In this document: piece by piece, positions 48,796 through 53,003 of the stretch
Numbering within the stretch: the first letter of the stretch is position 1
How the letters are laid out: the number at the start of each line of letters is the position of its first letter
DNA from: Chryseobacterium gambrini
GTDB lineage: Bacteria; Bacteroidota; Bacteroidia; Flavobacteriales; Weeksellaceae
Length of the DNA stretch: 64,000 nt
Direction: 5' to 3'
Assembly (NCBI RefSeq): GCF_900156825.1
Contig: NZ_FTOV01000011.1
Span: forward strand, 62,001 to 126,000
Translations under genes and position numbers: made by a program
Notes under the pieces: generated by a model
Told to the model about the DNA's origin: nothing
What the model saw: only the letters and a program-made list of their open reading frames with translations
The model's database searches: none

Positions 48796-48826
48796 TTGTT
48801 TTTAAATAATTTTATTGCTAACTTTA
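48796..48826 (+). promoter_or_regulatory. Predicted promoter of the cysteine-rich peptide
   Basis: TTG at 48796-48798 and TAACTTTA at 48819-48826 (one mismatch from TAnnTTTG) are 20 bases apart, about 57 bases before the ATG at 48883. Confidence 0.4.
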
Positions 48827-48882
48827 GAATGCGAAATCCGAAAAGCATAAAGAGTAGGAACAATCATTAAAACTAAATCATT

Positions 48883-49044
48883 ATGAAAAACTTAAAAAAA
48901 CTGTCAAGACCAGAGTTGAGAGCCATTGAAGGATCTGGTCCAAACTGGTCTTGTACACCAACTTCGTGTCCTAAAGGAAGCTGCTGTATTCCCGGAAGCT
49001 GGCCGAGTACTCCAAGAGCGTGCGTTATTTGTGCAGATTCTTAG
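48883..49044 (+). CDS. Cysteine-rich bacteriocin-like peptide precursor
   Basis: A 53-residue peptide. The leader MKNLKKLSRPELRAIEGSG resembles the double-glycine-type leaders of Chryseobacterium bacteriocin-like proteins (usual form MKNLKKL-R-ELK-I-GG; here GSG). The core of about 34 residues has six cysteines (C24, C29, C34, C35, C47, C50) with tryptophans and prolines: NWSCTPTSCPKGSCC, then RACVICADS. I infer secretion by a C39-type peptidase transporter and disulfide folding; neither transporter nor modifying enzyme is nearby. It has its own predicted promoter and a strong terminator. Antibacterial activity is unproven. Confidence 0.75.
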   Translation: MKNLKKLSRPELRAIEGSGPNWSCTPTSCPKGSCCIPGSWPSTPRACVICADS

Positions 49045-49102: not shown

Positions 49103-49138
49103 AAACACCCTTTCAGCTTTTGTTGAAAGGGTGTTTTA
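49103..49138 (+). terminator. Terminator of the cysteine-rich peptide gene
   Basis: Thirteen-base perfect arms AAACACCCTTTCA and TGAAAGGGTGTTT enclose GCTTTTGT and are followed by TATAATTTTA. It ends the single-gene transcript. Confidence 0.85.
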
Positions 49139-49222: not shown

Positions 49223-49957
49223 ATGAATGAAAACTGGCTACAGAAATATGAAGAAGTAAAAAATGTTCTCATATGTCCGACGGATTTGGAAACTTATTTT
49301 ACGTCTGATGAAATTGCAGGGCAGCCATTGGAAACGATGGAAATCGGAAATGTTTCCCTTCCTTCCGGAAAAATAGTGGTGAGAGATCCGCTTGTGAATC
49401 TGAATGCCAATCAATCACCTTATTTTATTCAGGCTCCGCAAGGAAATTTTCCGGTAACGGTTGCCGTGGTAAAATCTAAAGATTGGGGAGATAGATATGC
49501 TGTTGTAAAAGTTGAATTTGCAAAAGAAAAGCCTATTATTTACAGGGAGGCTTTAGTAGGAATTGAGGAATTGGAGGATGTAAGTGAAGATGATTTCTTT
49601 GGTTTTGAGGTAGATGCGGGACTAGGCTGTATTGCTGATGCGGAAGTGCTTCCTTTTGTGGATAATTTTTTTGATGAAGCAGATATTGATAATGTTTACG
49701 ACGATTATTTTGCCGATTTATTTGAGCAAAGCTATCAGTAAAATCCTAAAAACCAGAGAGATGAAGGAGACTGGATCAACTGGAAGGTTCCGAATACAGA
49801 ATACCGGATTCCTATGTTTGCAAGTGGTTTTGGCGATGGTATTTATCCTGTTTATTTTGCCTATGATGCAAATGGAAATATTTGTGGATTGTACATTCAG
49901 TTCATTGATGTTGAATTGGCCTTAAGCGAAGATGGAGATGAGGATGATGTAGATTAA
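49223..49957 (+). pseudogene. DUF4241 protein gene with in-frame stop
   Basis: ATG 49223 opens 172 residues ending FADLFEQSYQ at a TAA (49739-49741). The same frame continues NPKNQRDEGDWINWKVPNTE, RIPMFASGFGDGIYPVYFAYDANGNICGLYIQFIDVEL and stops at 49957, completing a 244-residue DUF4241 protein. DUF4241 traits lie on both sides of the stop: FPVTVAVVKSKDWGDRYAVVKVEF and GFEVDAGLGCIADAEVL before it, and the conserved FASGFGDG-YPVYFAYD after it. A single change (AAA to TAA fits the SY-KNP context) would explain it. Either a recent pseudogene, a truncated product, or a base error. Function of the family is unknown. Confidence 0.8.
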
Positions 49958-52306: not shown

Positions 52307-52852
52307 TTATGGTCTTGATGGATAAATTCCCTCTACGCAGATAATATAATTAAGCCCTACATACGGAGGCATTATATTAACAGGTGAATTTTGTCCTGAA
52401 TAAGTTACAGACATCGCATTAATAGGAGTGTCCGGAGTTCCATCTACGAAGCTTGGAATAGCATCAAACTGTCTTCCGTTCGGCTGTCCTGTGATGGCAA
52501 TAGAAGATACGGAAGTTGGAGTTACTGATGTTGCATTGGTGTTTGCAACTTTCAATTGACTGGTAAAACTTGGTAAATTAGAAGAAAGTAAAGTTACTTG
52601 TGGTGTTCCGCCAACTTCTCCTAAAACGTAAGATTTTCCTGTAGTTGAATTTCCCTGTCCGATAGGAGTACGTCCGTTAAGATTAGGTAAAGCAAATGTA
52701 TTAATACCATCACCTCCATAGGTTGTTCCTAAAATTGAGAAAAGCGCAGTGTTTTGAGCAATACTTAGTAAAGCACCATTGCAGAACATGTAGCCTCTAG
52801 GTGCAAAATTGCCTGCGAATACTTTGATTACGCCCATTAATTCGTCGTCCAT
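52307..52852 (-). CDS. Tail-collar domain protein (MdpB-like), copy 1
   Basis: A 181-residue tail-collar protein, the first of the tandem pair. MDDELMGVIKVFAGNFAPRGYMFCNGALL, SILGTTYGGDGINTFALPNLNGRTPIGQG and MPPYVGLNYIICVEGIYPSRP are the conserved blocks. The middle part differs most (VGGTPQVTLLSSNLPSF). It lies 33 bases upstream of its paralogue, a recent tandem duplication. No other phage gene is near, so this is a domesticated chromosomal operon. Transcription begins in 52853-53056, which contains a 20-base palindrome. Confidence 0.92.
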   Translation of the reverse strand: MDDELMGVIKVFAGNFAPRGYMFCNGALLSIAQNTALFSILGTTYGGDGINTFALPNLNGRTPIGQGNSTTGKSYVLGEVGGTPQVTLLSSNLPSFTSQLKVANTNATSVTPTSVSSIAITGQPNGRQFDAIPSFVDGTPDTPINAMSVTYSGQNSPVNIMPPYVGLNYIICVEGIYPSRP

Positions 52853-53003
52853 GATAATATAATTTTCAGTTTTTTTAAATTCCTACTCTGTTCATGGCTT
52901 TTCGGATACCGCCAAAAAATCTTTAAAAACTTATGTCTTATTGACATGTCAAAGTAACGACAATAGAATAATTCACAGTAGAGTAGAAAATACCAAATTT
53001 AAG

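What the first reader, a model, noticed from the sequence alone, without database searches (positions are those of the whole stretch)
48883..49044. Six-cysteine bacteriocin-like peptide behind the paa cluster
A 53-residue ORF not seen by length-limited gene finding has a double-glycine-style leader (MKNLKKLSRPELRAIEGSG) and a short core with six cysteines and two tryptophans, plus its own promoter and strong terminator. No processing transporter is near. It could be a secreted defence or signalling peptide, or a scaffold for modification.
Basis: partly seen in the sequence, partly recalled or inferred. Interest (0 to 1): 0.62.

Follow-up and report, generated by a model that had tools for sequence, protein, structure and literature searches.

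The report
Exported six-cysteine peptide with shared hub
A tiny Chryseobacterium gene makes a precursor that is probably trimmed, exported and disulfide-bonded by a maturation cluster lying just beyond the window, and its message begins with a small folded RNA that many other genes in this group of bacteria also carry.

Summary
The ORF is real and conserved: a precursor of the Chryseobacterium double-glycine-leader peptides (NF047798) that NCBI labels 'bacteriocin-like'. The genome holds 33 such leaders over cut-off. In 148 genus genomes 42, own included, have a match; in the 30 best, length, six Cys and two Trp are invariant, dN/dS about 0.15. 'No transporter near' holds only inside the window: about 24 kb downstream on the same contig lie a C39-peptidase ABC transporter, HlyD, nine more leader peptides and a VKOR–DsbA fusion. 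All 21 leader-bearing genomes of 120 also have fusion and transporter. Cys counts are even in 31 of 32 leader peptides here. Likely product: a 35-residue peptide with three disulfides, matured in trans; activity untested. Less expected: the 5' UTR is an Rfam DUF805b RNA. It also precedes 11 of 33 leaders including all three peptide groups of the hub, LodA here and a pinensin precursor elsewhere, but only 8 of 78 leaders sampled elsewhere. The fusion's N-terminus models, at low confidence, as a Cys-less C39-like fold, hinting at leader-guided oxidation.

The parts
48796..48827 (+). Bacteroidota-type promoter-like element TTG-N20-TAACTTTAG
   Evidence: Read from the sequence; TAACTTTA kept in at least 90% of 30 ortholog upstream regions; the promoter consensus itself is recalled, not from a call.
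48828..48860 (+). DUF805b RNA (Rfam RF02914): short stem-loop plus 3-bp pseudoknot, at the presumed 5' end of the mRNA
   Evidence: 45.1 bits vs gathering 35.6; covariation of stem and pseudoknot over the family. The 5' end of the mRNA is inferred.
48883..49044 (+). precursor peptide gene, 53 aa
48883..48936 (+). leader, residues 1-18 (MKNLKKLSRPELRAIEGS): L7(-12), E11(-8), L12(-7), I15(-4), G17-S18
   Evidence: NF047798 match to residues 1-17; positions fit the C39 substrate rules quoted in PMC6363468 (passages).
48937..49041 (+). predicted mature core, residues 19-53, six Cys (spacing 4,4,0,11,2)
   Evidence: cleavage site inferred, not measured
49103..49136 (+). intrinsic terminator

Best explanation
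The gene encodes the precursor of a small exported disulfide-rich peptide. It is transcribed from its own promoter, its message beginning with a DUF805b RNA. The 18-residue leader is recognised and cut after Gly-Ser by the C39 peptidase domain of the ABC transporter encoded about 24 kb away, which with its HlyD partner exports the 35-residue core; the VKOR-DsbA fusion of the same cluster forms three disulfides. One hub thus serves many precursors scattered over the chromosome. The most likely role is antagonism of neighbouring bacteria, as for bacteroidetocins; a signal is the main alternative. Shown here: the gene, leader class, conservation, hub genes, co-occurrence, Cys parity, RNA element. 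Inferred: transcription start, cleavage, export, disulfides, activity. I give the maturation route alone about 0.8; the figure below is for route plus antagonism.
For: Leader family match; 33 leaders over cut-off in the genome; leader residues fit the C39 recognition positions (passages of PMC6363468). C39-ABC transporter at C23:135041-137227 with HlyD, nine leader peptides and a VKOR-thioredoxin fusion. Of 120 family genomes 21 have leaders; all 21 also have a match to the fusion (26 genomes) and to the transporter (54 genomes): Fisher p 5e-19 and 4e-9 by genome; by genus 6 of 33 have leaders and all six are among the ten with the fusion, p 2e-4. Cys counts after the leader are even in 31 of 32 leader peptides of this genome (the 33rd had no locus) and in 69 of 73 distinct ones elsewhere. 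Six Cys invariant in 30 orthologs, dN/dS about 0.15. Precedent: bacteroidetocins, GG-leader Cys peptides from a region with a thiol oxidoreductase and a C39 transporter; deleting the oxidoreductase attenuates the toxin (PMC6671954, section 7 and passages).
Against: The gene is not adjacent to the transporter, and a second C39 transporter exists (C16:528909-531113, 47% identical). Some co-occurring matches are weak or broken (G398 fusion 25% identity, G346 fragments), and related genomes are not independent. The core is not a known bacteriocin: no Pfam match, CCPGW model far below cut-off (23.6 vs 80 bits). AlphaFold gives no confident fold (mean pLDDT 56.5). No immunity gene was recognised beside it, though none was sought systematically. 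Leader and core evolve at a like, slow rate, not the pattern of a fast-changing toxin. Synthetic bacteroidetocins made without disulfide-forming steps were still active, so disulfides need not be essential. No expression or activity data.
Confidence: 0.5

Rival explanations
1. Same export and disulfide route, but the product is an intraspecies signal or has another extracellular function (adhesion, protease inhibition), not an antibacterial one.
For: One match per genome in each of the 42 positive genomes at E<=1e-6; purifying selection on the core (dN/dS about 0.15); many different precursors per genome.
Against: Bacteroidetocins also lack an obvious immunity gene and kill (PMC6671954 section 7). 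No receptor gene was sought.
Confidence: 0.33
2. The peptide is a scaffold for a chemical modification (lanthionine, graspetide, radical SAM crosslink) and the Cys are not disulfides.
For: A grasp-with-spasm maturase (TIGR04193, 353.5 bits) lies just upstream of the hub of another species (L189); one Bacteroidota precursor with a DUF805b RNA is pinensin-like (L314).
Against: No radical SAM match on this contig (16 elsewhere); Cys parity 31 of 32; the co-occurring partner has disulfide-oxidase domains. LanM, YcaO and ATP-grasp genes were not searched for.
Confidence: 0.08
3. Orphan relic: a duplicated precursor far from the hub, no longer expressed or exported.
For: Distance from the transporter; in one species (C. 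viscerum, L164) the frame is lost.
Against: Purifying selection and identical length in the 30 best orthologs, conserved UTR, PaaZ upstream in 27 of 29 loci.
Confidence: 0.05
4. Chance ORF.
For: Short.
Confidence: 0.01

Closest known systems
NCBIfam NF047798 leader_Chryseo ('bacteriocin-like protein')
   Same: Leader domain over the curated cut-off (31.8 vs 23.5 bits).
   Different: The model covers only the 18-residue leader; this core matched no other NCBIfam model over its cut-off and no Pfam model.
NCBIfam NF047792 CCPGW family putative bacteriocin
   Same: Leader plus part of the core aligns (residues 1-40, 23.6 bits); here CCIPGSW or CCLPGRW stands where the name suggests CCPGW.
   Different: Far below the 80-bit cut-off; not a member.
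Bacteroidetocins (PMC6671954)
   Same: Double-glycine leader, Cys-rich core, C39 transporter and thiol oxidoreductase; no obvious immunity gene.
   Different: Theirs: 15-residue leader, 42-residue core, four Cys, four-gene region with a separate five-TM protein. Here: six Cys, precursor far from the hub, VKOR and DsbA-type domains in one protein, many precursors per hub.
Rfam RF02914 DUF805b RNA
   Same: 5' UTR match over gathering score.
   Different: Rfam types it as cis-regulatory; the structure line seen shows the stem alone, and the pseudoknot is added here from covariation. A link to GG-leader peptides was not found in the library searches; the original report could not be read.

Membership tests
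NF047798 leader_Chryseo | curated domain score 23.5 bits | tested here: met
   31.8 bits
NF047792 CCPGW family | curated score 80 bits | tested here: not met
   23.6 bits
C39-processed double-glycine peptides | leader with Leu(-12), Glu(-8)-Leu(-7), hydrophobic -4 and GG/GA/GS | tested here: met
   L7, E11, L12, I15, G17-S18 (against passages)
C39-processed double-glycine peptides | C39 peptidase transporter in the genome | tested here: met
C39-processed double-glycine peptides | actual cleavage and export | not testable with these tools
   needs mass spectrometry
Bacteroidetocins | precursor in one region with thiol oxidoreductase, five-TM protein and C39 transporter | tested here: not met
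   The precursor is about 24 kb from the hub; the hub has transporter and VKOR-DsbA fusion
Bacteroidetocins | core sequence similarity | not tested
   bacteroidetocin sequences were not fetched
Radical-SAM-modified peptides | maturase gene beside the precursor | tested here: not met
   16 radical SAM matches in the genome at E<=1e-5, none on contig C23
Inhibitor cystine knot peptides | Cys spacing C-x3..7-C-x3..8-C-x0..7-C-x1..4-C-x4..13-C (recalled) | tested here: not met
   Window spacing 4,4,0,11,2; 2 of the 29 leader peptides listed (window's included) fit
RF02914 DUF805b RNA | gathering score 35.6 bits | tested here: met
   45.1 bits
C39-like domain (in the VKOR-DsbA fusion) | C39 fold without catalytic Cys | tested here: inconclusive
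   For: model residues 1-111 match C39 peptidases 6mpz (Z 8.6, 2.4 A, 85 aligned), 7n87 (8.7, 2.6 A, 98) and 5xe8 (8.4, 2.5 A, 84); no Cys in the ten aligned N-termini, columns 1-110. Against: whole-model pLDDT 43.9; papain-like toxins score alike (9l5u Z 8.5, 8ssk 7.8); hhalign probability 0.2%; no Pfam C39 match.

The most novel reading that the evidence does not exclude
Two linked novelties. (1) The VKOR-DsbA fusion carries an N-terminal C39-like, protease-dead leader-binding domain, making it a leader-guided disulfide oxidase that reads the same double-glycine leader as the transporter, so that one hub can oxidise and export dozens of unrelated cores encoded anywhere in the chromosome. (2) The DUF805b RNA, a hairpin/pseudoknot placed typically ~22 nt before the start codon, is a post-transcriptional switch for a Bacteroidota set of genes in which antagonism and secreted-peptide genes recur (GG-leader peptides, a pinensin precursor, LodA).
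Probability: 0.3. Interest if true: 0.75.

Novelty: new variant of a known kind. Interest (0 to 1): 0.52.

Why it matters
It turns a 53-residue ORF into one of a genome-wide set of Cys-rich peptide precursors with a defined, testable maturation hub, and it gives an RNA family for which no function appears in any output seen here a concrete, recurrent set of client genes to test. If the oxidase does read the leader, it would be a compact way to make many different disulfide-rich peptides with one enzyme.

Tried and rejected
Modified-peptide scaffold: the radical SAM search found nothing on the contig; two matches lie near other leaders (C19:20228 and C46:169043); of these only the second was looked at, as a 370-aa ORF, and not resolved.

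Cystine-knot reading: spacing does not fit.

Structure of the peptide: AlphaFold uninformative. Structure of the fusion: low confidence from a two-sequence alignment; its C39-like match is reported as inconclusive. hhalign between shallow profiles gave no support; a PDB sequence search with the N-terminus gave two designed proteins at E 0.17 and 0.66; with the whole fusion the five hits cover only the DsbA part.

DUF805b clients are not clearly enriched in signal peptides by a crude rule: 43 of 90 clients against 20 of 57 window ORFs. The link of DUF805b to leaders is partial: 11 of 33 here; 25 of 46 genome-contig loci chosen by similarity to the window peptide (regular expression); only 8 of 78 leaders in 60 regions of other genomes taken from the best leader scores. 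Of 15 named ortholog loci 2 reach the Rfam gathering score; 11 of the other 13 were rescanned and all 11 match at 29-34 bits. MFE folding of the window UTR shows no stable fold (z 0.04); that program does not model pseudoknots, so it neither supports nor refutes. In one search two of five measures do not stand out: further pair types (210 of 500 shuffles reach it) and pairs changed on both sides (10 of 500); the outermost stem pair is unpaired in 15 of 42 rows.

Rows dropped or chosen: the 30 orthologs are the 30 best of 42 matches (locus cap). dN/dS uses pairs with dS 0.05-2 only (422 of 435 for the whole gene). Covariation counts use 47 of 48 motifs, found by a regular expression that fixes GAAAA and TAGG (L123 failed); alignment A6 left out five of the 47 (L090, L104, L105, L106, L127). 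In one search, 9 of 107 loci did not match the expression and 4 of 98 had no ORF found. In one search one of 33 leaders had no locus. The 29-peptide list came from a stricter expression than the 33. In some searches the minus-strand proteins were given without their first codon, which lowers the leader scores there.

Full report
What is there. The ORF at 48883-49044 (+) is an ATG-started 53-residue frame with six Cys and two Trp in its core. Its first 17 residues match NCBIfam NF047798, a leader domain of Chryseobacterium 'bacteriocin-like' proteins, at 31.8 bits (cut-off 23.5). It has its own terminator at 49103-49136. In 148 genomes of the genus 42, own included, hold a match at E<=1e-6; 40 of the 42 cover residues 1-53 and none of the 42 has an internal stop. 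In the 30 best orthologs (28 distinct DNA, 23 distinct proteins) length, all six Cys and both Trp are invariant and the median dN/dS is about 0.15 in leader and core alike. The paa-type gene upstream is found in 27 of 29 ortholog loci within about 1.5 kb, so this is mostly a stable chromosomal gene, though its downstream neighbours vary.

Leader. Passages of the LahT paper (PMC6363468) give the C39 recognition positions: Leu(-12), Glu(-8)-Leu(-7), a hydrophobic residue at -4, and Gly-Gly, Gly-Ala or Gly-Ser; in LahT the Glu at -8 proved dispensable. With G17-S18 as -2/-1 the window leader has L7, E11, L12 and I15 exactly there.

The hub. The genome has three C39 matches over cut-off. The best lies on the same contig, in a transporter gene at C23:135041-137227, about 24 kb downstream of the ORF and 9 kb past the window's end. 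The region (L055) runs, on the minus strand: three leader peptides, a 506-aa protein, three leader peptides, the C39-ABC transporter, three leader peptides, HlyD. The 506-aa protein has VKOR and DsbA-type thioredoxin domains. Neither HlyD nor the fusion reaches a curated NCBIfam cut-off. In 120 genomes of the family 21 carry NF047798 leaders; all 21 have a match to the fusion (26 genomes at E<=1e-20) and to the transporter (54 genomes at E<=1e-100) (Fisher tests). Some of these matches are weak or broken (G398, G346). By genus, 6 of 33 have leaders, 10 of 33 have the fusion, and the six are among the ten. The genomes are related, so p-values are indicative.

Disulfides. Peptides carry 4, 6 or 8 Cys after the leader in 31 of 32 cases of this genome and an even number in 69 of 73 distinct peptides of other genomes. 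One recurrent peptide has five (C46:170082; like ones in L247, L250, L251). Bacteroidetocins are the tested precedent: a C39 transporter plus a thiol oxidoreductase whose deletion attenuates the toxin, and peptides whose gel mobility shifts on reduction; yet synthetic peptides made without disulfide-forming steps were active (PMC6671954, section 7 and passages).

A possible leader-guided oxidase. The ten aligned N-termini of the fusion have no Cys in columns 1-110. On a low-confidence model (mean pLDDT 43.9; block means 60-81 in residues 51-110) Foldseek and VIA-align match this part to C39 peptidases 6mpz, 7n87 and 5xe8 (Z 8.4-8.7, 2.4-2.6 A, 84-98 aligned), and the C-terminus to DsbA/ScsC-like proteins. 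Two papain-like toxins score about as well (9l5u Z 8.5, 8ssk 7.8). Profile comparison and Pfam do not support the C39 match. The Z values are only just above the level the tool calls common. I hold this as a hypothesis.

The RNA element. The UTR at 48828-48860 is Rfam DUF805b, 45.1 bits against a gathering score of 35.6. In this genome 13 matches pass the gathering score and 19 have E<1e-3; 11 of those 19 stand 19-23 nt before a leader-peptide start, where about 0.008 would be expected by a rough chance estimate. All three peptide groups of the hub begin with one. The five named loci that hold a whole transporter gene each have one, over the gathering score, before the leader gene that brought them in (L181, L183, L186, L189, L190). 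The association is weaker elsewhere: 8 of 78 leaders in 60 sampled regions. In the class, 95 of 198 genomes have a match at E<=1e-6, 75 over the gathering score. Among 94 clients with an ORF, 87 have TAGG 15-32 nt before ATG (median 22). Clients are diverse: LodA lysine oxidase and a tail-collar protein in this genome; bacteriorhodopsin, DUF5684 and a pinensin-type lanthipeptide precursor in others. Covariation supports a 4-bp stem and a 3-bp pseudoknot between the hairpin loop and the conserved 3' GG: 93.2% of cells paired against 70.0% in shuffles and covariation score 0.571 against 0.144, with 0 of 500 shuffles reaching either, and slid structures at 0.102 or less (42 rows; 47 rows). Two other measures do not stand out (see Tried and rejected). 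The Rfam structure line seen shows only the stem. No paper of the library names DUF805b and one names RF02914, a deep-learning study seen only in the listing. The original 2017 report could not be read, so I cannot say whether it mentions the pseudoknot or these clients.

How it works, most likely. Transcription from a Bacteroidota-type promoter gives a short mRNA that starts with the DUF805b fold; translation gives the precursor; the hub cuts, exports and oxidises it. The activity is unknown; antagonism is the first guess because of the bacteroidetocin precedent, yet slow evolution of the core leaves room for signalling.

Verdict. The peptide itself is a member of a family NCBI already labels. 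What is less expected is the split arrangement with one hub for many scattered precursors, the possible leader-reading oxidase, and the RNA element found on both precursors and hub.

Noticed in passing
window 52880-52915 (-): A second DUF805b RNA (45.5 bits) before a tail-collar-domain protein gene at 52307-52852 (PF07484).
   Followed up: partly
window 49223-49957 (+): A DUF4241 gene appears split by an in-frame stop: ORFs 49223-49741 and 49814-49957 match the two parts of the model in the same frame.
   Followed up: no
L164 (C. viscerum): The ortholog has lost its reading frame after the leader.
   Followed up: no
L189:146-1246: In C. taeanense a grasp-with-spasm maturase (TIGR04193) sits directly upstream of the VKOR-DsbA fusion.
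   Followed up: no
G000:C46:170082-170135; L247, L250, L251: A recurrent leader peptide with an odd number (five) of Cys, against the rule.
   Followed up: no
L090 (G000:C19:662425-662459): DUF805b RNA before a CTQ-dependent lysine 6-oxidase LodA gene (NF038172).
   Followed up: partly
L314: DUF805b RNA before a pinensin-family lanthipeptide precursor in another Bacteroidota genome (NF038180).
   Followed up: partly
L057 (G000:C16:524000-534000): A second C39 transporter next to a different GG-leader-like peptide (51 aa) and two similar-looking ~430-aa proteins.
   Followed up: no
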